A stretch of 11,198 nt of DNA. Origin: Azoarcus sp. GTDB lineage: Bacteria; Pseudomonadota; Gammaproteobacteria; Burkholderiales; Rhodocyclaceae. The stretch spans positions 1-11,198 of the forward strand of contig JAIRLA010000295.1 of assembly GCA_031259795.1 (NCBI GenBank). The letters are read 5' to 3'. The notes beneath the pieces are model-generated. The model saw nothing but the letters and a program-made list of their open reading frames with translations, did no database searches and had not been told where the DNA came from. Shown piece after piece: positions 1,641 through 11,198 of this stretch (position 1 is its first letter; every line of letters starts with the position of its first letter). The translations under genes were made by a program, and so were the position numbers.

Positions 1641-2912
1641 TCAAACCGCCGCCAGCGCCTGATCGAGATCGGCGAGGATGTCGTCGATGTGCTCGATGCC
1701 GATGGACAGCCGCACCATATCGGGCGAAACGCCCGCTTTTTGCAATTCCCCGGCATCGAGCTGGCGGTGCGTGGTGGAAGCCGGGTGGCAGGCGAGCGAC
1801 TTGGCGTCGCCGATATTGACCAGCCGTGTAAACAAGGCGAGCGCATCCTGGAAGCGCGCGCCGGCTTCGGCCCCGCCCTTGATGCCGAACGTGAGAATGC
1901 CCGAAGCGCGCCCGCCCATGTATTTCCGCACCAGCGGGTAATCGGCGTGGCCGGGCAAGCCGGCGTAATTGACCCACGATACTTTTGCGTGCTTTTCGAG
2001 GAATCGCGCGACTTCGAGCGCGTTGTCGCAGATACGGTCGAGGCGCAGGGCGACAGTCTCCACGCCTTGCAGGATCAGGAATGCGTTGAAGGGAGAGAGC
2101 GCCGCGCCCTGATTGCGCAAGGGCACGACGCGGGCGCGGCCGATATAGGCCGCTTCGCCGAACGCCTCGGTATAGATCACGCCGTGATAGGAAACATCGG
2201 GTTCGCTCAGGCGCGGGAAACGCGCCCTGTGTCGCGCCCAGGGGAACTTGCCCGAGTCGACGATGACTCCGCCGAGCGAATTGCCATGTCCGCCGAGATA
2301 CTTGGTGAGCGAATGCACCACGATATCCGCGCCGTGCTCGAAAGGACGGCACAGATAGGGCGTCGGCACGGTGTTATCGACGATGAGGGGAATACCGGCT
2401 TCGTGGGCGATGGCGGCCAGCGGCGCGAAATCGGTGATATTGCCGAGCGGGTTGCCCACGGATTCGCAATAGATAGCCTTCGTGCGGGCGTCGATCAGGC
2501 GGCGGAAACTGTCCGGATCGCGGTAATCGGCGAAGCGCGTTTCGATGCCCGATTGCGGAAAAGTATGGGCGAAAAGGTTGTAAGTACCGCCATAGAGCGT
2601 GGCGGTAGACAGGATATTGTCGCCGGTCTCGGCGATCGTCTGGATGGCGTAAGCGATCGCGGCCATGCCGGAAGCCACCGCCAGCGCGCCGATACCGCCT
2701 TCCAGCGCCGCGATGCGCTGCTCCAGCACCGCGTTGGTGGGATTCATGATGCGGGTGTAGATATTCCCCGGCACCTTGAGATCGAAAAGATCCGCGCCAT
2801 GCCGGGTGTCGTCGAACGAGTAGGACGTGGTCTGGTAAATCGGCACGGCGACGGCGTGGGTCGTGGGTTCGGGCGTGTAGCCGCCATGGACGGCCAAGGT
2901 TTCGAGCTTCAT
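1641..2912 (-). CDS. metY: O-acetylhomoserine sulfhydrylase (aminocarboxypropyltransferase)
   Basis: This PLP enzyme makes L-homocysteine from O-acetylhomoserine and sulfide, giving direct sulfhydrylation for methionine synthesis in the cytoplasm. The 423 residues match the usual length of about 425-430. Visible motifs of the Cys/Met-metabolism PLP family are: ETLAVHGGYTPEPTT (4-18); YTRIMNPTN with the phosphate-binding Tyr/Arg (52-60); ASGMAA (80-85); TLYGGTYNLF (105-114); DNTVPTPYL with the Asp that contacts the pyridine nitrogen (179-187); and VVHSLTKYLGGHG with the Schiff-base Lys at 204. The insertion around FPRLSEPDVSYHGVIYTEAFG is typical of MetY rather than MetB or MetZ. The start ATG at 2910-2912 gives the conserved N-terminus and has a GGAAG element upstream. 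A membrane protein gene follows after 14 bp. O-succinylhomoserine as substrate cannot be excluded from sequence alone. Confidence 0.95.
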   Translation of the reverse strand: MKLETLAVHGGYTPEPTTHAVAVPIYQTTSYSFDDTRHGADLFDLKVPGNIYTRIMNPTNAVLEQRIAALEGGIGALAVASGMAAIAYAIQTIAETGDNILSTATLYGGTYNLFAHTFPQSGIETRFADYRDPDSFRRLIDARTKAIYCESVGNPLGNITDFAPLAAIAHEAGIPLIVDNTVPTPYLCRPFEHGADIVVHSLTKYLGGHGNSLGGVIVDSGKFPWARHRARFPRLSEPDVSYHGVIYTEAFGEAAYIGRARVVPLRNQGAALSPFNAFLILQGVETVALRLDRICDNALEVARFLEKHAKVSWVNYAGLPGHADYPLVRKYMGGRASGILTFGIKGGAEAGARFQDALALFTRLVNIGDAKSLACHPASTTHRQLDAGELQKAGVSPDMVRLSIGIEHIDDILADLDQALAAV

Positions 2913-3640: not shown

Positions 3641-3850
3641 TTACCAGTGCGGCGGAACCTCGTCTTCCGGACGCGGATGCGCCGTTGCCCGCGCGTCCTT
3701 GAGTTGCCGCGCCAGTTGCGCTATTTGCGCCTGCAAGCGGTCGATCAGGCATTGCTGGCGATAAGCGGCGTTGTTGAGCGCGTCGATTTGATCTTCGGCC
3801 AGCATCAGGCGGGATTCGAGGCGCTCCAGGCGCTCTTCCGTGTCGCTCAT
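3641..3850 (-). CDS. slyX: SlyX family protein
   Basis: The 69-residue acidic, helical protein has an uninterrupted coiled-coil pattern from about residue 5 to 53 (RLERLESRLMLAEDQIDALN and following) and ends in VPPHW. SlyX proteins are about 70 residues long with the same coiled coil and a closing PPHY or PPHW motif. Their function is unknown; the name comes from location next to slyD in enterobacteria, and lysis activity is not established. The ATG overlaps the stop of the upstream GTPase gene as ATGA, so translation is probably coupled and the start is well defined. Confidence 0.9.
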   Translation of the reverse strand: MSDTEERLERLESRLMLAEDQIDALNNAAYRQQCLIDRLQAQIAQLARQLKDARATAHPRPEDEVPPHW

Positions 3851-4755
3851 CGCGCCTCGCTCCCGTCGTTCGCGGCCTGGGCGGGCGGTATTGCCGCATC
3901 CGCCGCCAGCATCTTTTCCCGGCTTTCCGGCGTCTCCAGGCTGATGCGTCCGAGCGCGCCATTGCGGTAGTCGGTGAGAAAGATGTTTGCCGCTTTTTCC
4001 AGATCGGACGCGCCGCCCTTTTGCACGCAGGCGCGCCGGCGGGCAATGGCTTCGAGCAGCGCTTCGCCGTCCATCCCGGCGGGGTCGATGCGGTAGCGGG
4101 CGACGATGGACGCGGGGTAGCGCGCCAGCACAATGTCGCCCAGGCGCGCGGCGACTTCTTCGTCGATCATGGCGTTGCGGCCAATGGCATGACTGGCGGC
4201 GAGCATGAAACCGTCGATGTCGTGGCTGATTTTCGGCCACATCAATCCCGGGGTGTCGGTCAGCGTCATGCCCGGCCCGAGATCGAGTGTCTGCTGGCTT
4301 TTCGTTATCGCCGGTTCATCGCCGACTTTGGCCACGCGGCGCTTGAGGAGCGCATTCATCAGGGTGGATTTCCCCACGTTGGGAATGCCGGTCAGGATCA
4401 GGCGCAACGGTTTGTCGCCGCCGGTGCGATGTGGCGCGAGCTGGCGAGCGAGCGCCGGGATGCATGCCGCCGCTCCGGGTTTCTTGAGCGAGATCGCCGC
4501 CGCATGCACCCCCGGGCAGGCGTCGTAATGCGCGATCCATGCGCGCGTCGCCTCCGGGTCGGCGAGATCGGCCTTGTTGAGAAGCTTGAGGCAGGGCCGG
4601 TTGCGGAAACGGCGCAGCTCCTCGATCAGCGGGTTGCTGCTGGCCCCGGGCAGGCGGGCGTCGGTCACTTCGATGACAACGTCGATTACCGCGAGCGTTT
4701 CGGCAAGCTTGCGGCGCGCGGAATTCATGTGACCGGGAAACCACTGGACAGGCAT
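3847..4755 (-). CDS. ylqF: Ribosome biogenesis GTPase YlqF/RbgA type (circularly permuted)
   Basis: Relatives act late in assembly of the large (50S) ribosomal subunit and couple GTP hydrolysis to its maturation in the cytoplasm. The 302 residues show the circularly permuted G-motif order that defines the family: G4 LLNKAD (58-63) comes before G1 GIPNVGKST (123-131), then G3 DTPG (167-170). The N-terminus QWFPGHMNSARRKL (4-17) is the family signature, and LMWPKI after DTPG is also typical. A helical C-terminal region of about 120 residues follows. The start at 4753-4755 gives this canonical N-terminus. The gene ends in an ATGA overlap with slyX. The tail after about 270 is rich in Ala and Glu and probably disordered. 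In proteobacteria the protein is usually not essential; its role here is inferred from family. Confidence 0.93.
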   Translation of the reverse strand: MPVQWFPGHMNSARRKLAETLAVIDVVIEVTDARLPGASSNPLIEELRRFRNRPCLKLLNKADLADPEATRAWIAHYDACPGVHAAAISLKKPGAAACIPALARQLAPHRTGGDKPLRLILTGIPNVGKSTLMNALLKRRVAKVGDEPAITKSQQTLDLGPGMTLTDTPGLMWPKISHDIDGFMLAASHAIGRNAMIDEEVAARLGDIVLARYPASIVARYRIDPAGMDGEALLEAIARRRACVQKGGASDLEKAANIFLTDYRNGALGRISLETPESREKMLAADAAIPPAQAANDGSEAR

Positions 4756-5230
4756 CGGCGATGGAAAGAGGCGGAAACGAAGGGCGCATTATCGCATGGA
4801 GGGGCATGCGGCTTCGCGGCGATCATCGTCTCGCCAGCCCTTGCCGCGCATTGGCGTCGTCCCTGGCCTCGCGCCCTGTTCCCGCCTTGTTTGCGAATCC
4901 GCATGCGCCGGGGTTCCGGGCGATGTGGCGCGATCCGGATGGTTTTGTTGCGGGTTGTCATCGACGTTGTAGTTTGTCGAGTCCAGCGCCCCGAAATATC
5001 CTGTGTCAACTTACTATGGTTTTCAGGTTTAGCCTTGGCGGGGGAAATGATCTTTGCCAGGGTGTTGGAAAGTGTCTTGTTGTGCGAAAAACCACGCGCG
5101 CGGATTCGTGCATGCAATATCTTTTCCTGTCGGCACGCCGCCGCAATGTGGATCGAGTGCGTCGCCGAGTATCGACACTTATAAAGCAAATTCGGCTCAT
5201 TCCTGCGTGGGCCGGGGAGGGGAGACTAAA
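4756..5230. other. Divergent intergenic region between ylqF and the chemoreceptor gene
   Basis: This 475-bp stretch lies between two divergently transcribed genes and should carry both promoters. The only candidate signals are the GATAAT at 4788-4793 for ylqF, and the strong ribosome binding site GGGGAGGGGAG at 5214-5224 for the chemoreceptor. A TATAAA at 5180-5185 lacks a -35, and a GCCGAGTA at 5164-5171 lacks a sigma-28 -35. A 154-residue minus-strand open frame (4725-5189) overlaps the ylqF start, is Arg/His/Pro-rich and resembles no family; I treat it as spurious. Confidence 0.6.
4788..4793 (-). promoter_or_regulatory. Possible -10 element for the ylqF-slyX unit
   Basis: The minus strand reads GATAAT (5 of 6 bases of TATAAT) about 33 bp before the ylqF start codon. 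No good -35 hexamer lies at 16-18 bp, so this is only a candidate. Confidence 0.22.
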
Positions 5231-6892
5231 ATGAAGGTCAAGCACAGGGTTTTTGTCCTTTTTGCCATTGGTTTGCTGGGCATGCTCATCATCGCGGGCA
5301 TCGGCGCGGCTTCCATGTGGCAGGACGAAAAAGCGTTCCAGGGCATCTCGGAGGTCCGTATGCCGAACATGGAACAATTGCTGCGCCTGCGCGGCGCGTC
5401 CACTGATCTCGTGCGCCGCGGCTATGAAATTTCCTCCAAGCGCGGTCTGGATCGCGAACTCCTGGAAGCCGAATTGCGGCGTTTGCAAAAGGCTGAAGAG
5501 GATGCGATCGCAAGGGCGGGGGATGCGTTCAGGAAGTTCGAGGAGTTGCCCACTCCGAAGGAAAGCCTGCTCATCTGGGACAAGTTCAAGTCGCTGTGGG
5601 ACGGGTGGCACAAGTTCGATCTCGACATCCTTTCCGCCCTGAACATGGCGATTGCTTCCCCGACGCCGGAGAATATCCAGAGGCTGATGCGGATCATCGA
5701 CGACAGTGACATGAAGCGCCGCGACGTCACCCCGCAACTGGCCGCGCTTCTCGACGAACTGACCAGCCTGGAAAGCCAGATCAGCAACAGAACCATCCAG
5801 GACGCCGTGTCCGGGAGCGAACGCGACTTCACCATCATGTGCATGGTCGCCGGAATTGGCCTCGCCGTGCTGGCGGGGTTCACCTGGTCGATCATGCATT
5901 CGGCGATCAAGCCCCTCGAAGCGGCGAAAAATACGGTTTCGCGGGTCGCGGAAAATCTCGATCTGACCCTGCGTCTCGACAACAAGGCCAAGGACGAGAT
6001 CGGCGAGTTGTCGCAGTCTTTCGATTACATGATGGGCAAGCTCCAGCTTGCTTTCCAGACCATCCAGAACCAGATCGCCGAAGTCGTCAAGACCGTGGAA
6101 GCGGTGGCCGCCGGCGCCGGACAGGTCGCGCAAAGCTCGGCGAGCCAGAATGCTTCCGCTTCCGCGATGGCCGCCTCCATCGAGGAGATGAGCGTCTCGA
6201 TCAACACCGTCTCCAGCAGCGCCTCCGAAGCGCAAACAATGGCGCAAGCGGCCGGCGACATCTCCGGGCAAGGCAGCCAGATCATCGAGCGGACTTGCGA
6301 CGAGATCGCGACGATCGCGCAGATCGTCTCCAACGCCGCCGGCGTCATCAAGAACCTGGGCGAGGAATCGCACCAGATCACCAATGTGGTCAACGTCATC
6401 AAGGAAGTGGCCGACCAGACGAATCTGCTGGCCCTGAATGCCGCCATCGAGGCGGCGCGCGCCGGCGAACAGGGCAGGGGGTTCGCGGTTGTCGCGGATG
6501 AGGTGCGAAAGCTCGCCGAGCGTACCGCGCAATCGACAGTCGATATTTCCAGCATGGTGAGCAAGATCCAGATTTCGGCCACCGAGTCGGTCGCGGAAAT
6601 GGAAAAAGTCGTCAGGCAAGTGGAATCCGGCCAGTCGCTGGCGCAGGACGCCGGCGAGCGCATGAAAACCATCCGCGCGGAGGCCGCCAAGGTATCGGGC
6701 GCGGTAACGGAAATCTCCGAAGCGCTGAAAGAGCAAAGCCAGGCGAGTCACGACGTGGCGCGTCATGTGGAGAGCATCGCCCAGATGACTGACGAGAACA
6801 ACGCCGTTGCCGAGGACGCCGCCGCCAGCGCCAAACGGCTCGATCGCCTCGCCGGTGAAGTCAATGCCGCGCTCGGCCATTTCAAGGTGTAG
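5231..6892 (+). CDS. Methyl-accepting chemotaxis protein (transmembrane chemoreceptor)
   Basis: This inner-membrane chemoreceptor senses a periplasmic signal and controls the CheA-CheW kinase complex, and hence flagellar rotation. The 553 residues are in class-I order. TM1 is about 8-29. A largely helical periplasmic domain of about 170 residues (30-200) is consistent with a four-helix-bundle sensor. TM2 is about 202-222. A HAMP domain (about 223-276) carries IKPLE and the [10 protein letters not shown] motif. The long cytoplasmic coiled coil has its conserved hairpin tip at about 391-431 ([19 protein letters not shown], then [16 protein letters not shown]). The ligand cannot be read from sequence. 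The C-terminus is GHFKV, without the NWETF-type CheR/CheB pentapeptide tether. The start at 5231 is set by the strong SD and places TM1 at the N-terminus; an upstream in-frame ATG at 5054 would add 59 unrelated residues. It is an orphan receptor gene with no che genes beside it. Confidence 0.95.
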
Positions 6893-6915
6893 GAATTGGC
6901 CGATGCCCGAAACCT

Positions 6916-6957
6916 CGCCGCCGCGGCATAGATATCCACACACTCCGGAATAGCGGC
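6916..6957 (+). repeat. Third module of the 3'-end repeat, after the chemoreceptor stop
   Basis: Starting 24 bp after the chemoreceptor stop, the plus strand carries GCGGCATAGATATCCACACA followed by CTCCGGAATAGCGGCG. The reverse complement matches 1053-1090 closely (CTATTC, GGAGTGTGTGGATA, TGCCG, GGCGGCG). So the same module lies downstream of two unrelated genes in the same orientation relative to each. Confidence 0.65.
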
Positions 6958-6963
6958 GTTTGA

Positions 6964-6997
6964 GATTCCCCTCCCCCGCTTGCGGGGGAGGGGAATC
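6964..6997. repeat. Perfect 16-bp-arm palindrome between convergent genes
   Basis: Arms GATTCCCCTCCCCCGC (6964-6979) and GCGGGGGAGGGGAATC (6982-6997) flank TT and are exact reverse complements. It shares the core of the repeats at 760-783 and 861-884 but has longer arms. It lies between the ends of the chemoreceptor (plus) and large LRV (minus) genes and would form a very stable hairpin in either transcript. There is no T-run, so it is at most a non-canonical bidirectional terminator or mRNA 3'-end stabiliser. Confidence 0.7.
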
Positions 6998-7038
6998 CAT
7001 CGGAAGAATTGGCCATTGCGAAAGCCGCATCCCCTCGT

Positions 7039-7104
7039 CATTGCGAGGAGCGCAGCGACGTGGCAATCCAGTTCGTTCTATTCGGCGCGCAGCGCCGCTA
7101 TTTT
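7039..7104 (-). repeat. Modular 3'-end repeat, copy C (just beyond the large LRV stop)
   Basis: This copy has the ATTGC/GCAAT inverted repeat (CATTGCGAGGAGCGCAGCGA, then GTGGCAATCCAG). GTTCGTTCTATT follows, then the hairpin CGGCGC-GCA-GCGCCG (7083-7097) and TATTTTCCC. It lies 20-85 bp past the stop of the large LRV gene, in the same gene-relative orientation as copies A and B. The CATTGCGAGGAGCG type of repeat is common in proteobacterial genomes. Confidence 0.7.
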
Positions 7105-7124
7105 CCCGGCTCCCCGCGCCTTAT

Positions 7125-9323
7125 TCATGTCCGCTTCGGCGCGAAACGGCGCAGGGCGGCTTTCCGCACGCCGGGGTCCGCGTCCTCGGCCAATACCGCC
7201 AGGAGGTCGCGCGGCGTGGCGGGGTTCTCCGCCAACCTGGCGCGGACGGAGGTTTTTTCGTGGCTTGCCATGCGCGTCAGAACGTCGAGCGGCGCACCTG
7301 GATTGCCCGCGACGGCTTTATGCAATTCTTCCAGACGCCAAATCGTGGCGTCCTGATTCAAGGACAAGGCTCGCAAGGCTTGCGGCGGCGTCCTGGGATT
7401 GGCCGCGACCGCGACGCATACATAGTGATCGTCCGTATTGTCCGCCAGGATTTGCAGGATTTCCGGCGGGGTATTCGGATTCCTGGCGACATGTTCGTGA
7501 ACGCCGCTTCGCTTGTTCTCCGCCAAGGCTCGCAAGGCTTCCGGCGGGGTGTTGGGGCACCTCGCCACCGAATGATAGACGGAATGGTCGTTCTTGCCGG
7601 ATGAATCGCGGGCAAGCAGCAGCAAAGCTTCTGCCGGAGTATTGGGATTGTCCGCGATATATCGCCGGATCTCGATATACGGGTCAAGGGCAAGATGGAC
7701 GAAGGCTTCTTGCGGCCTCCGGGCATTTTGCAATACCGCCTTGCGAACCAAGGCATCTTCGTCGTCCATCAGACGCGCCAGAAGCTCTTGCGGCGCGTTG
7801 GGGTTTCTCGCCACGGTGCGGCGAATCCCGGCGGACGCGTCGCCCGCCAGACGCGCCAGAGTCTCATGCGGCGCATGGGGATTGTCCGCTACGGTAAAAC
7901 GAATCCAGTGCACTTCATCCTCTGCCAGACGCGCCAGCACCTCATGTGGCGCACGGGGATTTTCCGCCACGGCGCGGCGAACCCAAGCGAATTCATCGCC
8001 CGCCAGCCGCGCCAGGACTTCCGGCGAGGCATGCGCTTCCGCTGCCGCGCTGGCGCGCTGTTCTCCCTCGAAGAGCGCCGCCAGGGCTTCCGGCGGCATG
8101 GCGGGGTTTCTCGCTGCCAGTTGGCGCACGCTCGGGTAGATACGGTGAAGCAGCCTTGCCAGGCTTGCGGGCGGCGTATGGGGATTCCTCGCCACGCAAT
8201 CAAGAACCTTCGGATCGGCGTGATCCGCCAGCCGATCAAGCACTTCCGGTGGCGTGCCGGGATTCTCCGCCAAGTGTCGCGGGACATTTCCCTTGGCGTC
8301 CGCGAGCGTCCGCAAGACCTCTGTGGGCGTCGCCGGATTGGCCGCCAAGTGTCGCAGGACATTTCCCTTGGCGTCCGCGAACGTCCGCAATACCTCTGCG
8401 GGCGTCGCCGGATTGGCCGCCAGGACTTCCGCGAGGTTTTTGTCCCGCGCAAGTTTTTCCAGGCATTCCGGCGGGGTATTGGGATTTCCCGCGACGCTCT
8501 GGCGCACATGAACATTCTCGTCCTCCGCCAGCGTTGCCAGGATATCCGGCGGCGTGTTGGGATTTGCCGCCAGATGGCGCGAAACGCTTTCGTCATGTCG
8601 CGCGAGCGTTCGCAGTACATCCCCGGGCGTTGCCGGATTCGCCAGCAGGATTTCCGCGAGTTTCTTGTCGCGCGCGAGTTTTCTCAGGCATTCCGGCGGG
8701 GTGCGGGGATTTTCCGCGACGCCCCGGCGCACGTGACCATTCTTGTCTTCGGCCAGCGCCGCCAAGACTTCTGGCGGGGTTTCCGGGAGTTGGGCCATCC
8801 TGCGCCGCCGGATCAGCACATCTGGCGGTGTATTGGGATTGAGCGACACCGGCTCGCGCACTTTCGGGCTTTTGTCCTCGGCCAAAAGGCGCAGGGATTC
8901 CGCCGGGAGCGCCGGATTGGCCGCGACGAACTTGCGGACGTCCACATCCTTGTCGCACGCCAGTTTTTCCAGCAAATCCGGGGGGGCGTGGGGATTCTGC
9001 GCCACGGAATAGCGCACTTCCTTGAGCGCGTCGCCGGCAAGCTGGAACAGGATGTCCCGCGGCGCGTTCGGGTTTCTCGCCGTGAAGGCGCGTACCCAGC
9101 GATCCCGATGACCCGCCAGCGCCGCGAACTGTTCCGGGGGCAGGGCGGGATGCGCCGCGACATAAACGCGCACCCAGCGATCCTTGTCCGCCATGAGTTC
9201 CAGAAGGCGCTCGGGCGAAGTTCTTCCGTCCCTGGCCTCCGCCCGCCGCGCCCCGGTTTCCGGCTCCGCCGGGGCGTCGAGTTCTTCCATACCGTCTTCT
9301 TTCATGAACTGGTTTTCTTCCAT
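7125..9323 (-). CDS. Large leucine-rich-repeat-variant (LRV) protein, about 27 repeats
   Basis: The 732-residue protein is almost wholly LRV repeats of 25-26 residues with the pattern NPxTPPEVLxxLAxDxxxxVRxxVA. Such repeats fold as paired helices (one alpha, one 3-10) in a right-handed solenoid, usually a protein-binding scaffold. About 33 charged residues precede the cap TSPERLLEL (35-43). Repeats then start near residues 58, 84, 110, 136, 162, 179, 205, 229, 254, 280, 304, 329, 354, 380, 406, 430, 455, 481, 507, 533, 559, 589, 615, 642, 674 and 700, ending VRKAALRRF. One unit (162-178) is shortened; those starting at 559 and 642 carry insertions. No signal peptide or membrane segment is seen. 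The N-terminal cysteine cluster that binds [4Fe-4S] in the Azotobacter vinelandii LRV protein is absent. It is the last gene of the minus-strand cluster, 44 bp after the small LRV gene, with AAGGGAG upstream of its ATG. Function unknown. Confidence 0.93.
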   Translation of the reverse strand: MEENQFMKEDGMEELDAPAEPETGARRAEARDGRTSPERLLELMADKDRWVRVYVAAHPALPPEQFAALAGHRDRWVRAFTARNPNAPRDILFQLAGDALKEVRYSVAQNPHAPPDLLEKLACDKDVDVRKFVAANPALPAESLRLLAEDKSPKVREPVSLNPNTPPDVLIRRRRMAQLPETPPEVLAALAEDKNGHVRRGVAENPRTPPECLRKLARDKKLAEILLANPATPGDVLRTLARHDESVSRHLAANPNTPPDILATLAEDENVHVRQSVAGNPNTPPECLEKLARDKNLAEVLAANPATPAEVLRTFADAKGNVLRHLAANPATPTEVLRTLADAKGNVPRHLAENPGTPPEVLDRLADHADPKVLDCVARNPHTPPASLARLLHRIYPSVRQLAARNPAMPPEALAALFEGEQRASAAAEAHASPEVLARLAGDEFAWVRRAVAENPRAPHEVLARLAEDEVHWIRFTVADNPHAPHETLARLAGDASAGIRRTVARNPNAPQELLARLMDDEDALVRKAVLQNARRPQEAFVHLALDPYIEIRRYIADNPNTPAEALLLLARDSSGKNDHSVYHSVARCPNTPPEALRALAENKRSGVHEHVARNPNTPPEILQILADNTDDHYVCVAVAANPRTPPQALRALSLNQDATIWRLEELHKAVAGNPGAPLDVLTRMASHEKTSVRARLAENPATPRDLLAVLAEDADPGVRKAALRRFAPKRT
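8265..8414 (-). repeat. Tandem 75-bp near-identical repeat inside the large LRV gene
   Basis: Two adjacent 75-bp units encode NPATPAEVLRTFADAKGNVL / RHLAA and NPATPTEVLRTLADAKGNVP / RHLAE (residues 304-353). The DNA differs at only a few bases, for example CAAGTGTCGC plus GGGACATTTCCCTTGGCGTC against CAAGTGTCGC plus AGGACATTTCCCTTGGCGTC. Most other repeats in the gene have diverged far more, so this is a recent duplication or gene conversion. Confidence 0.85.
8286..8732 (-). repeat. Higher-order repeat: two 75-residue blocks of three LRV units
   Basis: Residues about 198-272 and 273-347 align block to block. Each has VR..VA.NP.TPPECL.KLARDK (sharing an unusual Cys), then a short 24-residue unit (LAEILLANPATPGDVLRTLA against LAEVLAANPATPAEVLRTFA), then a third unit. 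At the DNA level the shared 16-mer CAGGCATTCCGGCGGG recurs at 8685 and 8460, exactly 225 bp apart. This shows growth by duplication of three-repeat cassettes. Confidence 0.75.
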
Positions 9324-9367
9324 GTCACACTCCCTTGTTCCACATCACCGCAACGAAGCCCCGGCCT

Positions 9368-9670
9368 TCATGTTCGTGTCTGCTTGAAATGGCGCAGGGC
9401 CGCCCGCCGCACCTCGGGGTCCCCGTCCTCGACAAGAACCGCCAGAAAGTCGCGGGGCGTGCCGGGATGCTTTGCCACGGCAAGGCGAACATAATCTTCA
9501 TCGCTCGCCAGATGCGCCAGAGCTTCTGGCGGCGTGTTGGGATTTTCCGCCACGGCATTGCGAACCATATGATCCTTGTCCGCCGCGAGTTCCAGCAAAC
9601 GTTCGGGCGAAGTCCCTTTGTTCCTGGCTTCCTCGAGCCGCATCTGAACTTCTTTCCAGTCTGTTGCCAT
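9368..9670 (-). CDS. Small LRV protein (100 aa), miniature paralogue of the large one
   Basis: The protein has a charged helical lead (1-19), the cap TSPERLLELAADKDHMVR (20-37), and two LRV units starting at NPNTPPE (43) and HPGTPRD (68). It ends in GDPEVRRAALRHF with an RT-terminated tail. Both caps match the large LRV protein: TSPERLLELMADKDRWVR at its N-terminus, and TPRDLLAVLAEDADPGVR followed by KAALRRF at its C-terminus. It is therefore a cap-to-cap version of the same fold with about 24 units fewer. The gene starts 24 bp after the upstream VWA gene stop, with AAGGAAG ahead of the ATG, and ends 44 bp before the large LRV gene. It is cytosolic by appearance. Function is unknown; a role as partner, regulator or half-site binder of the VWA protein is speculation. 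Confidence 0.85.
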   Translation of the reverse strand: MATDWKEVQMRLEEARNKGTSPERLLELAADKDHMVRNAVAENPNTPPEALAHLASDEDYVRLAVAKHPGTPRDFLAVLVEDGDPEVRRAALRHFKQTRT

Positions 9671-9694
9671 GTCACGCTTCCTTGTTCCACATCA

Positions 9695-10891
9695 TCAAAA
9701 CGAATCCCCAACTTCCATGCGCACCACTCGTCCCCAGCCGGGGGCGGGAACCTGTGCCTTATTTGCCGTGATGCACCAGATGACCGGGTAATCGCGTTCG
9801 GGACCGAAATCCGTGTAGCCGTCGGTCATGACGAGCGCGACGGCGGGCGGCGTGAAGAATTCCTGCCGGACGATGCCCCGGTCGATCCAGTCGAGCGCTG
9901 CCGGCATGTCGGTGCCGCCGCCGCCCTTGAGGGCGTCCCGGCTCTGAAGACCTTGCAGCACCGTGTCGCGCGCGGGCACGCAATCGAAGGAAAGCGGCGG
10001 GTACACTTTAGCGTCACAGGGAATGATCGTCACGGCGCGAGGAAAACAGACTTCCACTACCCCAAGGATTTCGCCGATGAAGCGGGCCAATTCCTTTTTC
10101 CCGATAGAGCCGGAGGTATCGACCACGATGGCGATGTGTTCGAGCGCCCCCGCCGTCGCCATCCCCGGCAAAAAAGTCTCCAGCACGCCATTCCTGCGGT
10201 TGGGGCGCATCCAGTCGTAATCGCTTTTTTCCAGCGCGGTCAGGTATTCGGCCAGGAGCGCCCGCCAATCCTGTTCCGGCTCCAGGATTTTTTCCAGATA
10301 CCGCTCGACGCCCAGGGGCAGGCTCCCTTGCGTCATGCGCGCGGCCTGGGCGGCTTGCAGGATGAGGGCGCGCGCCCGCTGGCGGTTGCGCGCGCGTTGC
10401 GCCGGAGAAAAAATCTTTTCCGCGAGGTCGTCGCCTTCCTGCAAATCGGCGAGAAACTTGCCGCCTAAACGCTCTTCGATGCCCGGCGGGAGCTTTTCAT
10501 AAACTTCTTCCTCGATCAGCCCCTTATATGCCTTGTTGCAAAATCCGCCGGGAGGCAGGGCGCCGCCTTCTTCCAGAATCATCAGATTGATGACGCAGTC
10601 GCAAGCAATATTCCAGCGCAGGGGATGGCGCGCGCCCCGGCGGAAGACATGTTCGAAAGCCACGTGCATGACTTCATGCTTGAGCAGCGCCACCTGTTCC
10701 TTCGCGCCCAGCGCGGCGAAAAACGCCGGATTGATCTGGATGCGCGCGCCGTCCGTGCAGGCGGTGGAACACCAGGGCGCGTCCAGGAACCGGGGATCGA
10801 GATAAAACGCGAGCGAGGAAAAAAAGACATCGTTGCGGGAAAGGCGCACCAGCGCGTGGCTCAGGGCTTTTTCCGCCTTGGTCTGCCTCAT
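9695..10891 (-). CDS. VWA-like/metallopeptidase-domain protein (DUF2201 type)
   Basis: The 398-residue protein has two parts. The N-terminal domain (about 1-220) carries LLKHEVMHVAFEH (70-81 region), an HExxH zinc-peptidase-like motif with a further His five residues on. The C-terminal VWA-like domain (about 250-395) has a complete MIDAS: DTSGS (258-262), the Thr of GGGGTD (327) and the Asp of MTDG (357). This is the layout of putative metallopeptidase plus VWA (DUF2201) proteins, which usually pair with a MoxR-type AAA+ ATPase; whether they cleave substrates is not known. The start is set at 10889-10891 because it overlaps the preceding gene's stop as ATGA; a longer in-frame opening to 11140 reads Arg/Gly-rich noise antisense to sense of the upstream gene. 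The two LRV genes follow at once, suggesting one operon and a shared complex. Confidence 0.92.
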   Translation of the reverse strand: MRQTKAEKALSHALVRLSRNDVFFSSLAFYLDPRFLDAPWCSTACTDGARIQINPAFFAALGAKEQVALLKHEVMHVAFEHVFRRGARHPLRWNIACDCVINLMILEEGGALPPGGFCNKAYKGLIEEEVYEKLPPGIEERLGGKFLADLQEGDDLAEKIFSPAQRARNRQRARALILQAAQAARMTQGSLPLGVERYLEKILEPEQDWRALLAEYLTALEKSDYDWMRPNRRNGVLETFLPGMATAGALEHIAIVVDTSGSIGKKELARFIGEILGVVEVCFPRAVTIIPCDAKVYPPLSFDCVPARDTVLQGLQSRDALKGGGGTDMPAALDWIDRGIVRQEFFTPPAVALVMTDGYTDFGPERDYPVIWCITANKAQVPAPGWGRVVRMEVGDSF

Positions 10892-11145
10892 GCCGCGCCC
10901 AGCAGAGCGCGATGCTTGCCGACCCACGCGGTATGCGCCTCGCCGAGCAAATACATCGGATTCTTCCGCCGCACGAAATTGATGAAGAGCGCGGCAAAGC
11001 GAATATCGAGCCGGTCGAGCCAAACGATACTGTGCTGGCTCTCCGCCTGGGCGCGCGCCATATCCTTGCCGCCCGCCTCGATGACCCGGCGCGCCAGCGC
11101 CACGGCCGCCGCGTAGCGTACATCCGCCTTGTCCGCGCAAGCCAC
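10888..11145 (-). CDS. Small protein of unknown function upstream of the VWA gene (about 85 aa)
   Basis: I do not recognise this protein. From a GTG at 11143-11145 it reads MACADKADVRYAAAVALARR, an amphipathic helical stretch, then HSIVWLDRLDIRFAALFINF and a basic tail with MYLLGEAHTAWVGKHRALL. It looks like a folded protein: balanced hydrophobic and charged residues, Trp, Tyr and Phe present, and codon usage like its neighbours. Its stop overlaps the VWA start (ATGA), which implies translational coupling. The only start is GTG, placed 3 bases after an in-frame TAG that ends the upstream gene, with no clear Shine-Dalgarno. It may therefore be a separate coupled gene or the C-terminal part of the upstream protein cut off by a stop codon. 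Confidence 0.6.
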   Translation of the reverse strand: MACADKADVRYAAAVALARRVIEAGGKDMARAQAESQHSIVWLDRLDIRFAALFINFVRRKNPMYLLGEAHTAWVGKHRALLGAA

Positions 11146-11148
11146 CGC

Positions 11149-11198
11149 CTACCCCGCCAGCACCTCATCAATGTCCGGCAAATCCTTCTTCAGTGCGC
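11149..11198 (-). CDS. 3' end of an unidentified upstream gene (partial)
   Basis: The last 15 codons before a TAG (11149-11151) read ALKKDLPDIDEVLAG, an acidic helical C-terminus in good coding register. The rest lies beyond the right edge. In comparable clusters the gene before a DUF2201/VWA protein is a MoxR-like AAA+ ATPase, but nothing in these 50 bases proves that. The frame continues past the TAG into the 85-residue protein. Confidence 0.45.
   Translation of the reverse strand, partial: ALKKDLPDIDEVLAG

What the first reader, a model, noticed from the sequence alone, without database searches (positions are those of the whole stretch)
7125..11198. Gene cluster joining a VWA/metallopeptidase protein with two LRV-repeat proteins
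A DUF2201-type protein (HEVMH motif plus intact MIDAS) is followed within 24 and 44 bp by a tiny and a giant LRV protein on the same strand, with an ATGA-coupled small unknown gene ahead. VWA proteins of this class normally work with MoxR AAA+ ATPases as a chaperone-like machine. I know of no described system in which LRV solenoids are dedicated partners. The layout suggests a module where the LRV solenoids act as client adaptors, or as substrates whose repeats engage the MIDAS or peptidase domain. Positions and motifs are seen; the shared function is inference.
Basis: partly seen in the sequence, partly recalled or inferred. Interest (0 to 1): 0.72.

Follow-up and report, generated by a model that had tools for sequence, protein, structure and literature searches.

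The report
MoxR-peptidase machine with repeat-protein partners
In the six bacterial genomes found with it, a small machine made of an ATP-driven ring protein and a predicted peptidase is followed by one or more length-variable repeat proteins, which look like interchangeable recognition parts, possibly for defence against phages.

Summary
In detail: a DUF2201 gene (HExxH zincin plus intact MIDAS) is followed at 24 and 44 bp by LRV genes of 100 and 732 aa. The "small unknown gene" ahead is the C-terminal part of a MoxR-like ATPase; the contig ends inside it. The adjacency is conserved: all six genomes found with this DUF2201 subfamily have MoxR, DUF2201 and LRV in that order on one strand, with no shared flanking genes. 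LRV was not seen at 80 viral and 15 cellular loci with distant DUF2201 (72 and 14 of them with over 1 kb downstream), and is rare (8 of 398 Pseudomonadota genomes). The LRV proteins share a C-terminal cap, differ in repeat number, and sit in duplicated cassettes; one locus has 12 LRV ORFs. There nonsynonymous change concentrates at a few repeat positions. Three of the other five loci have defence genes within about 5 kb; eight control loci gave none at E 1e-40. Best reading: a MoxR-VWA/zincin machine with a repertoire of LRV recognition proteins, most likely a conflict/defence system of the MoxR-vWA kind. Module: well supported. Defence role and mechanism: inferred, untested. I found no description in the paper library held here.

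The parts
10888..11198 (-). C-terminal part of a MoxR-like AAA+ ATPase, cut by the contig end; in-frame TAG at 11149-11151
   Evidence: 68% identity over 81 aa to residues 283-363 of the 366-aa MoxR-like protein L048:7958-9058(-) (first seen); genome-wide match 10894-11196 with 1 TAG. No other piece of the gene was found in this genome at E 1e-5.
9695..10891 (-). DUF2201 protein, zincin-like metallopeptidase domain plus VWA-like domain, 398 aa
   Evidence: Pfam PF13203 and PF09967 above cut-off; ATGA overlap with the MoxR frame at 10891-10888
10664..10678 (-). HEVMH metallopeptidase motif
   Evidence: read from sequence; H72, E73, H76 and also H81 invariant in 16 aligned subfamily members
10106..10120 (-). 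DTSGS, first MIDAS motif of the VWA-like domain
   Evidence: read from sequence; D258, S260, S262, T327, D357 invariant in 16 aligned members
9368..9670 (-). LRVsmall, 100 aa, 3 LRV repeats
   Evidence: PF01816 61.7 bits; 3 repeats
7125..9323 (-). LRVbig, 732 aa, about 26-27 LRV repeats
   Evidence: PF01816 313.5 bits; 27 matches to own profile, 26 repeat starts
9667..9719 (-). Leader of LRVsmall (end of DUF2201, AAGGAAG site, start codon), first copy
   Evidence: 43 of 53 bases identical to the leader of LRVbig; best of 20000 random placements 31
9320..9372 (-). Leader of LRVbig, second copy; suggests that the two LRV genes are duplicated cassettes
9368..9475 (-). Shared C-terminal cap of LRVsmall
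   Evidence: cap profile built without the window: 31.5 bits, best of 120 other LRV proteins 28.2
7125..7232 (-). Shared C-terminal cap of LRVbig
   Evidence: cap profile built without the window: 37.4 bits, best control 28.2

Best explanation
A MoxR-like AAA+ ring and a DUF2201 protein (VWA plus zincin metallopeptidase) form an ATP-driven remodelling or degradation machine. The LRV genes behind it encode its interchangeable recognition parts: solenoids of about 2 to 27 repeats of 26 residues that bind targets through one variable face and dock on the VWA/MoxR part through a shared C-terminal cap. ATP hydrolysis would then remodel the bound target and hand it to, or switch on, the zincin. The likeliest biological role is conflict with invaders such as phages, with LRV cassettes duplicated and diversified as a repertoire. 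Shown: the gene order and its conservation, the cap, the cassette duplication, the uneven substitution pattern, defence genes nearby at three loci. Inferred: complex formation, docking by the cap, target binding by the variable face, peptidase activity, defence.
For: Order MoxR-DUF2201-LRV on one strand in 6 of 6 subfamily loci: window, L048/L076, L077, L078, L079, L080. A probable seventh: P0242, a capped 144-aa LRV, and P0004, a DUF2201 at 69%, each list a longest contig of 16684 bases. No flanking ORF is shared among the six loci at E 1e-8, so the module sits at different sites. LRVbig-like proteins occur in only 8 of 398 Pseudomonadota genomes, and none of the 7 others has MoxR or DUF2201 in the stretch fetched. 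In G000 all 12, and in G188 (=L079) all 6, listed LRV matches lie in this locus. L078 has 12 LRV ORFs of 61 to 507 aa, the last cut by the end of the stretch, with one 0.9-kb gap and recurring N-termini and leaders. Leaders are duplicated in the window (43 of 53 bases) and, as read, over about 95 nt in L079. Shared C-terminal cap: 18 of 20 caps score above every one of 120 other LRV proteins when their own locus is left out of the profile. In L078, repeat pairs at least 75% alike show pN 0.48 at positions 2, 20, 21, 24, 25 against pS 0.22 overall, ratio 2.16 (bootstrap 1.82-2.53). Zincin and MIDAS residues are invariant in 16 of 16. Defence genes within about 5 kb: HEC-01A, HEC-01B, PDC-S05, PDC-S13 at L078, RT-Cas1 at L077, PDC-S67 at L079; also an IetA-like tandem AAA behind LRV genes at L077 and L079, with a WYL protein at L079. 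Flank test at E 1e-40: 0 of 76 ORFs at 8 distant MoxR-DUF2201 loci against at least 6 defence-gene proteins (my assignment) of 46 ORFs at the 6 LRV loci.
Against: No window protein matches a PADLOC defence family except a stray AbiEi match to LRVsmall at 0.0085. The window's true neighbours (PLP enzyme, GTPase, chemotaxis protein) are not defence genes by Pfam. By locus the defence enrichment is 3 of 6 against 0 of 8 (one-sided Fisher 0.055), and four of the six proteins come from one locus; housekeeping-type genes lie between them and the module. The variable positions were chosen after seeing the L078 data; positions 4 and 5 (pN 0.33, 0.31) vary as much as position 20 (0.29) but were left out. 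Against pS at the same positions the L078 excess is smaller (0.48 against 0.33). At 70% identity L048 and the unrelated L049 control both give 1.43; at 75% they give 1.81 (1.08-2.89, 12 pairs) and 1.26 (1.01-1.52); L079 is uninformative (6 pairs, interval 0-9.6). The window has no repeat pair at or above 75% identity, so no test there. The MoxR gene is damaged or chimeric as assembled at 3 of 6 loci (window, L077, L080): assembly or amplification artefact, or decay. L080a and L078_6 caps do not beat the best control, and L080b has no cap. No structure could be predicted.
Confidence: 0.5

Rival explanations
1. A housekeeping chaperone machine of the RavA-ViaA / CbbQ-CbbO / NorQ-NorD kind: LRV solenoids are adaptors that bring particular cell complexes to the MoxR-VWA machine for maturation or metal insertion.
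For: MoxR-vWA pairs studied so far mostly work this way (section 8 of PMC7159879, read); the best solved relatives of the L048 MoxR are NorQ, midasin and CbbQ, all weak (E 0.011, 0.089, 0.13).
Against: Patchy presence: close subfamily in 2 of 21 genus genomes and in 3 of 395 family genomes at E below 1e-200. No shared flanking ORF among the six loci. LRV number varies from 1 or 2 to 12, odd for a fixed adaptor. Defence genes within about 5 kb at three loci.
Confidence: 0.22
2. LRV proteins are substrates or regulated clients of the zincin rather than sensors, for example cleaved solenoids, with the cap as the cleavage or docking signal.
For: A peptidase domain with invariant HExxH and a conserved C-terminal cap that differs from internal repeats. 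For ternary systems a VMAP peptidase is predicted to cleave the vWA protein (Kaur et al. as told in passages of PMC10907252).
Against: No cleavage site is evident; the LRVs scanned with Pfam (window and L048) show only repeat-type matches above cut-off or weak chance-like ones, and no effector domain (those of L077-L080 were not scanned). Peptidase activity of DUF2201 is itself only predicted.
Confidence: 0.13
3. Passenger repeats: LRV genes landed behind the pair once in an ancestor and expand by slippage and recombination with no shared function.
For: LRV repeats duplicate easily, and the six loci descend from one DUF2201 subfamily, so the linkage may have arisen once.
Against: The linkage and cap persisted while the DUF2201 proteins diverged to 62-73% identity with the window's and the loci came to lie at different sites; leaders and start sites are kept across the L078 array; nonsynonymous change is near zero at positions 11, 14, 17, 23, 26 and high at a few others.
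Confidence: 0.1
4. A phage-type role: MoxR-DUF2201 is a phage accessory pair and the bacterial loci are domesticated remnants with LRV added, for example for particle assembly.
For: 505 of 50,697 phage records carry a DUF2201 relative below 60% identity; L080 lies next to Mu-like prophage genes.
Against: LRV in 0 of 80 viral loci; the best 80 of 509 viral relatives are at most 36% identical; phage structural genes were seen only at L080 among the flanking ORFs that I scanned with Pfam, which are a selection.
Confidence: 0.05

Closest known systems
MoxR-vWA ternary conflict systems (VMAP, beta-propeller and FtsH types; Kaur et al. 2020, PMC7159879)
   Same: MoxR AAA+ plus vWA protein plus a further protein in one cluster; HEAT repeats and other solenoids are named among the associated domains (passages).
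   Different: Here the vWA protein is a DUF2201 zincin fusion and the third component is a capped, tandemly duplicated LRV; the terms LRV and DUF2201 occur 0 times in that paper's main text. The L048 MoxR reaches only 20.2 bits against bpMoxR (cut-off 27).
DGR-diversified sensors of MoxR ternary systems (PMC10907252)
   Same: A variable recognition part is coupled to MoxR/vWA and proposed to be a sensor of invasion (passages).
   Different: Variation here lies at certain positions of LRV repeats plus repeat number; that paper's variable fold is mostly a C-type lectin. I did not search for a DGR here.
MoxR-DUF2201 pair of phages, plasmids and other bacteria
   Same: Same two genes in the same order; MoxR adjacent on the same strand in 72 of 80 viral loci and found in 13 of 15 cellular loci.
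   Different: 26-33% (cellular) and 29-36% (viral) identity to the window DUF2201, an insert in several, and no LRV seen: 0 of 80 and 0 of 15.
LRV protein of Azotobacter vinelandii (recalled: solenoid of alpha and 3-10 helices with an iron-sulphur cluster)
   Same: LRV repeats (PF01816).
   Different: No iron-sulphur domain match in LRVbig or LRVsmall; no PDB chain matched LRVbig at E 0.01 by sequence.
Variable lymphocyte receptors of jawless fish (recalled)
   Same: Constant ends, variable number of repeats, variability at certain repeat positions.
   Different: Unrelated repeat family, separate complete genes instead of somatic assembly; analogy only.

Membership tests
DUF2201 (PF13203 + PF09967) | Both domains above the Pfam cut-off | tested here: met
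   143.2 and 67.1 bits against cut-offs 23.2 and 26.4
DUF2201 (PF13203 + PF09967) | HExxH and MIDAS residues intact | tested here: met
   HEVMH, DTSGS, T, D present; invariant in 16 of 16 aligned subfamily members
DUF2201 (PF13203 + PF09967) | Metallopeptidase activity | not testable with these tools
   none
LRV (PF01816 / PF25591) | Repeats above the Pfam cut-off | tested here: met
   LRVbig 313.5 and 213 bits, LRVsmall 61.7 and 53.4 bits
Iron-sulphur LRV of Azotobacter type (name recalled) | Iron-sulphur domain | tested here: not met
   No such family among the Pfam matches up to E 0.1 of LRVbig and LRVsmall
MoxR AAA+ ATPase | P-loop and Walker B | tested here: inconclusive
   Seen in a relative (GPPGIGKS and VLFLDEASS in L048); the window holds only the C-terminus. 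Pfam matches of L048 are weak: AAA_5 21.4 bits against 22
MoxR AAA+ ATPase | Helix-2 insert of the clade | not tested
   No structure prediction available
VMAP-type MoxR-vWA ternary conflict system | MoxR and vWA genes adjacent | tested here: met
   6 of 6 subfamily loci; in the window and at L080 only part of MoxR is present
VMAP-type MoxR-vWA ternary conflict system | VMAP, or bpMoxR with beta-propeller | tested here: not met
   In the window and L048 the third component matches LRV and other repeat-type families and no VMAP or propeller family; bpMoxR below cut-off
Known anti-phage system in PADLOC-DB 2.0.0 | Window proteins match a system's models | tested here: not met
   Only a stray AbiEi match to LRVsmall at E 0.0085 among 4 proteins

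The most novel reading that the evidence does not exclude
A bacterial immune-receptor repertoire: tandem, separately started LRV receptor genes with a constant docking cap and a positively selected binding face, amplified by cassette duplication and read out by a shared MoxR-VWA/zincin machine that destroys or remodels whatever any receptor binds.
Probability: 0.25. Interest if true: 0.92.

Novelty: new variant of a known kind. Interest (0 to 1): 0.72.

Why it matters
If right, it adds a solenoid-receptor branch to the MoxR-vWA conflict systems and gives the orphan DUF2201 pair, common on phages and plasmids, a testable biochemical job. The L078 array, with 12 receptor-like ORFs of different repeat number behind one putative machine, makes it possible to ask directly whether bacteria keep germ-line repertoires of protein-binding receptors, and whether the cap is the common docking signal.

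Tried and rejected
Rejected: the small gene ahead as a new gene (it is the MoxR C-terminus). G004 as a further case: its 703-aa LRV (L049) starts with a lipoprotein-like signal, no DUF2201 was seen in the remaining 0.7 kb of contig, and it sits among genes that look like type VI secretion genes (recalled, not scanned). G006 as a case: only about 50 residues of an LRV C-terminus remain. A CRISPR array beside RT-Cas1: no direct repeats of 24 bases or more in L077:6000-13046. No DGR search was run. Rfam scan of six loci gave only one tRNA. Promoter scan of 6900-11198 found 0 sigma-70-like sites (0.8 expected by chance), so it says little. Solved-structure searches: none for LRVbig at E 0.01 or for the DUF2201 alignment at E 1.

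Dropped or weak: the first regular expression for repeats found only 2 repeats, so the profile was rebuilt; one search assumed 24-residue units and stopped with an error, corrected to 26; the first cap expression was too strict and replaced by a profile. L053's weak LRV is missed by my own profile, so that profile has limited sensitivity. L100 repeats L055 and was not counted; L086 and L089-L091 have short flanks and were not counted among the 15 cellular controls. Of those 15, MoxR was not found at L059 and L098, and L051 has no downstream sequence; of the 80 viral loci (kept out of 509 relatives) 72 have 1 kb or more downstream. The 120 control LRV proteins are the listed best of 595. The genome scan used two strict peptide patterns and is not exhaustive; the protein search scored 8000 candidates and listed 120 of 1461. 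In the flank test the ORFs were picked by length, so many, the window's four among them, are antisense to or overlap the true genes; this holds for both sets. The RtcR_PspF2 match I take to be the sigma-54 activator of L048/L076 (Pfam) and did not count it. One search printed 25 of 45 families and no member names; the six defence-gene proteins are assigned, and more could hide in the 20 not shown.


Full report
WHAT IS THERE. The window is the whole of contig C108 of an unnamed 2.4-Mb genome, 78% complete. On the minus strand, in order of transcription: the C-terminal end of a MoxR-like ATPase (11198-10888), a 398-aa DUF2201 protein (10891-9695), a 100-aa LRV protein (9670-9368) and a 732-aa LRV protein (9323-7125). 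The DUF2201 protein has HEVMH and an intact MIDAS set. Those residues (H72, E73, H76, D258, S260, S262, T327, D357), and H81, are invariant in 16 aligned subfamily members, the window's own included.

THE SMALL GENE IS MOXR. The frame ahead of DUF2201 matches residues 283-363 of a 366-aa protein in a same-genus genome (L048:7958-9058) at 68% identity (first seen). That protein shows GPPGIGKS and VLFLDEASS and weak AAA_5 and bpMoxR matches, both below cut-off. In the window the frame carries TAG at 11149-11151, 48 bases from the contig end. I cannot tell a real stop from a contig-edge error. No other piece of this MoxR was found in the genome at E 1e-5.

CONSERVED ORDER. A search of 5.8 billion proteins found a tight subfamily (besides the window's own, 15 members at 56-77% identity over at least 97% of the query, and five with lower coverage) and then a drop to 37% (best 120 of 1461 listed). 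A scan of one genome for each of 84,980 species with the alignment of 16, by two strict peptide patterns, gave five loci: L076 (the same 13693-base contig as G005/L048, titled Azoarcus sp.), L077, L078, L080 (three records titled Betaproteobacteria bacterium MS502) and L079 (titled Zoogloeaceae, in G188). In all five, and in the window, MoxR, DUF2201 and at least one LRV follow each other on one strand: 6 of 6 genomes. At L077 the MoxR frame is interrupted and at L080 only its C-terminal two thirds remain, fused to a phage tape-measure frame. That these are termite-gut bacteria I infer from record names and recall; it was not tested. A probable seventh case: P0242, a 144-aa capped LRV, and P0004, a 69% DUF2201, each list a longest contig of 16684 bases. 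Outside the module the six loci share no flanking ORF at E 1e-8.

CONTROLS FOR ADJACENCY. Distant DUF2201 proteins keep MoxR but not LRV. Among 80 viral loci (of 509 relatives), MoxR is adjacent on the same strand in 72 and LRV was seen in 0; 72 of the 80 have 1 kb or more downstream. Among 15 cellular loci, MoxR was found in 13 and LRV in 0; 14 of the 15 have over 2 kb downstream. LRV itself is rare: 8 of 398 Pseudomonadota genomes, the window's own included, match LRVbig at E 1e-10; of the 7 others, and L053, none has MoxR or DUF2201 at E 1e-4 in the stretch fetched. In the window's genome all 12 LRV matches, and in G188 all 6, fall in this locus. Within the genus, 4 of 21 genomes match LRVbig: the window, G005, G004 (a separate, lipoprotein-like LRV) and G006 (a remnant of about 50 residues). 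The close DUF2201 is in 2 of 21.

THE LRV PROTEINS. The repeat is 26 residues. LRVbig has about 26-27 copies, LRVsmall 3, and L078 about 100 in 12 ORFs of 61 to 507 aa, the last cut by the end of the fetched stretch, with one gap of 0.9 kb. Most L078 ORFs begin with one of two recurring N-termini, each with its own repeated leader and start site. In the window the 53 bases around the two LRV starts are 43 of 53 identical (best of 20,000 random placements: 31), and the second copy still resembles the end of DUF2201. In L079 the 95-nt spacers before two LRV genes differ at two sites as read. In L048 the gap after DUF2201 holds what reads as a decayed LRV end. So LRV genes appear to multiply as cassettes. 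Twenty of 21 complete LRV proteins carry a common C-terminal cap, roughly NPNTPPxVLAVLALDxDPxVQxAALxxLQ (in L079d about 30 residues follow it; L080b lacks it). With each locus left out of the profile in turn, 18 of 20 caps score above all 120 other LRV proteins; L080a and L078_6 do not.

VARIATION. In L078 the nonsynonymous change among similar repeats is highest at positions 2, 21, 24 and 25 (pN 0.48-0.57), then 4, 5, 20 and 19 (0.25-0.33), while positions 11, 14, 17, 23 and 26 hardly change. Positions 20, 21, 24, 25 and 2 (that is, 28) would fall on one side of a helix (inference). For L078 pairs at least 75% alike, pN at those five is 0.48 against overall pS 0.22 (ratio 2.16, 1.82-2.53; 312 pairs); at 85% the ratio is 3.40 (2.17-5.82; 36 pairs), at 70% 1.86 (1.64-2.13). 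With the same positions, L048 gives 1.81 (1.08-2.89) at 75% and 1.43 at 70%; the unrelated L049 control gives 1.26 (1.01-1.52) at 75%, 1.43 at 70% and 0.53 (0-2.86, 7 pairs) at 85%; L079 has too few pairs. So at 70% L048 does not differ from the control. Further limits: positions were picked on L078, pS at the face is itself 0.33, and the window offers no pair at 75%. I read this as suggestive for L078, not proof, of selection for change.

NEIGHBOURS. L078 carries HEC-01A (8e-153), HEC-01B (2e-83), PDC-S05 and PDC-S13 2 to 6 kb upstream of MoxR. L077 has an RT-Cas1 fusion 0.8 kb after its tandem-AAA gene, facing it. L079 has PDC-S67 about 5 kb upstream of MoxR and, behind a further LRV that overlaps it by 4 bases, a tandem-AAA protein whose AAA part resembles IetA, then a WYL protein. 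L077 has the same tandem-AAA protein (75%) directly after its LRV. L080 has a ParE-like toxin, a SIR2 gene and Mu-like prophage genes, none of which I counted as defence hits. As a control, 76 flanking ORFs of eight distant MoxR-DUF2201 loci gave 0 PADLOC matches at E 1e-40, against at least six defence-gene proteins among 46 flanking ORFs of the six LRV loci (the six assigned). By locus that is 3 of 6 against 0 of 8 (one-sided Fisher 0.055). The window itself shows none, though its four ORFs in that scan are mostly antisense to its true genes; those were named by Pfam.

MECHANISM. MoxR-vWA pairs are thought to bind a peptide of a client at the MIDAS and use ATP to remodel it (PMC7159879 section 8, read). 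The simplest extension is that capped LRV solenoids choose the client and the zincin acts on it. Variable sensors coupled to MoxR/vWA have been proposed for DGR systems (PMC10907252, passages), and solenoid repeats are listed in ternary systems (PMC7159879, passages). I put a conflict/defence role at about 0.5, housekeeping adaptors at 0.22, LRV as zincin substrate at 0.13, passenger repeats at 0.10 and a phage-derived role at 0.05.

NOVELTY. Library searches for 'leucine rich repeat variant' with MoxR (0 papers), MoxR with LRV, COG3864, variable lymphocyte receptor with MoxR, DUF2201 (four papers; titles and abstract openings seen, none on this) and 'leucine rich repeat variant' alone (one citrus LRR paper listed) gave no description. 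The library lacks most subscription papers. I class it as a new variant of a known kind, the MoxR-vWA systems, without claiming VMAP membership, since the VMAP or propeller feature was not met.

Noticed in passing
window 11149-11151: In-frame TAG inside the MoxR-like frame, 48 bases from the contig end; nonsense codon or edge error.
   Followed up: partly
L077:791-980: A 79-nt, 99% inverted repeat with a 32-nt gap interrupts the MoxR frame; could be an amplification chimera or a real rearrangement.
   Followed up: partly
L080:5400-9968: A 1522-aa open frame joins a phage tape-measure protein (PF20155) to the C-terminal two thirds of MoxR; fusion or assembly chimera.
   Followed up: partly
L077:3974-6112 and L079:15314-17446: A tandem-AAA protein, 75% identical between the two loci, with IetA-like AAA domains, directly behind an LRV gene; a possible second LRV-AAA+ partnership.
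   Followed up: partly
L049:9635-11746: A 703-aa LRV protein with a lipoprotein-like start among genes that look like type VI secretion genes (recalled, not scanned) in a same-genus genome.
   Followed up: partly
L052:7332-8381: Only about 50 residues of an LRV C-terminus, 78% identical to LRVbig, remain in G006: perhaps the scar of a lost LRV gene.
   Followed up: partly
phage records H16-H30: DUF2201 relatives in Vibrio phages are annotated as HNH endonuclease, probably a misannotation.
   Followed up: no
P0165, P0169: Proteins named glutathione synthase in Neisseriaceae carry LRV repeats in the same chain.
   Followed up: no
window 1641-2912, 3847-4755, 5054-6892: Ordinary neighbours: Cys/Met PLP enzyme, ribosome-binding-type GTPase, methyl-accepting chemotaxis protein.
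   Followed up: yes
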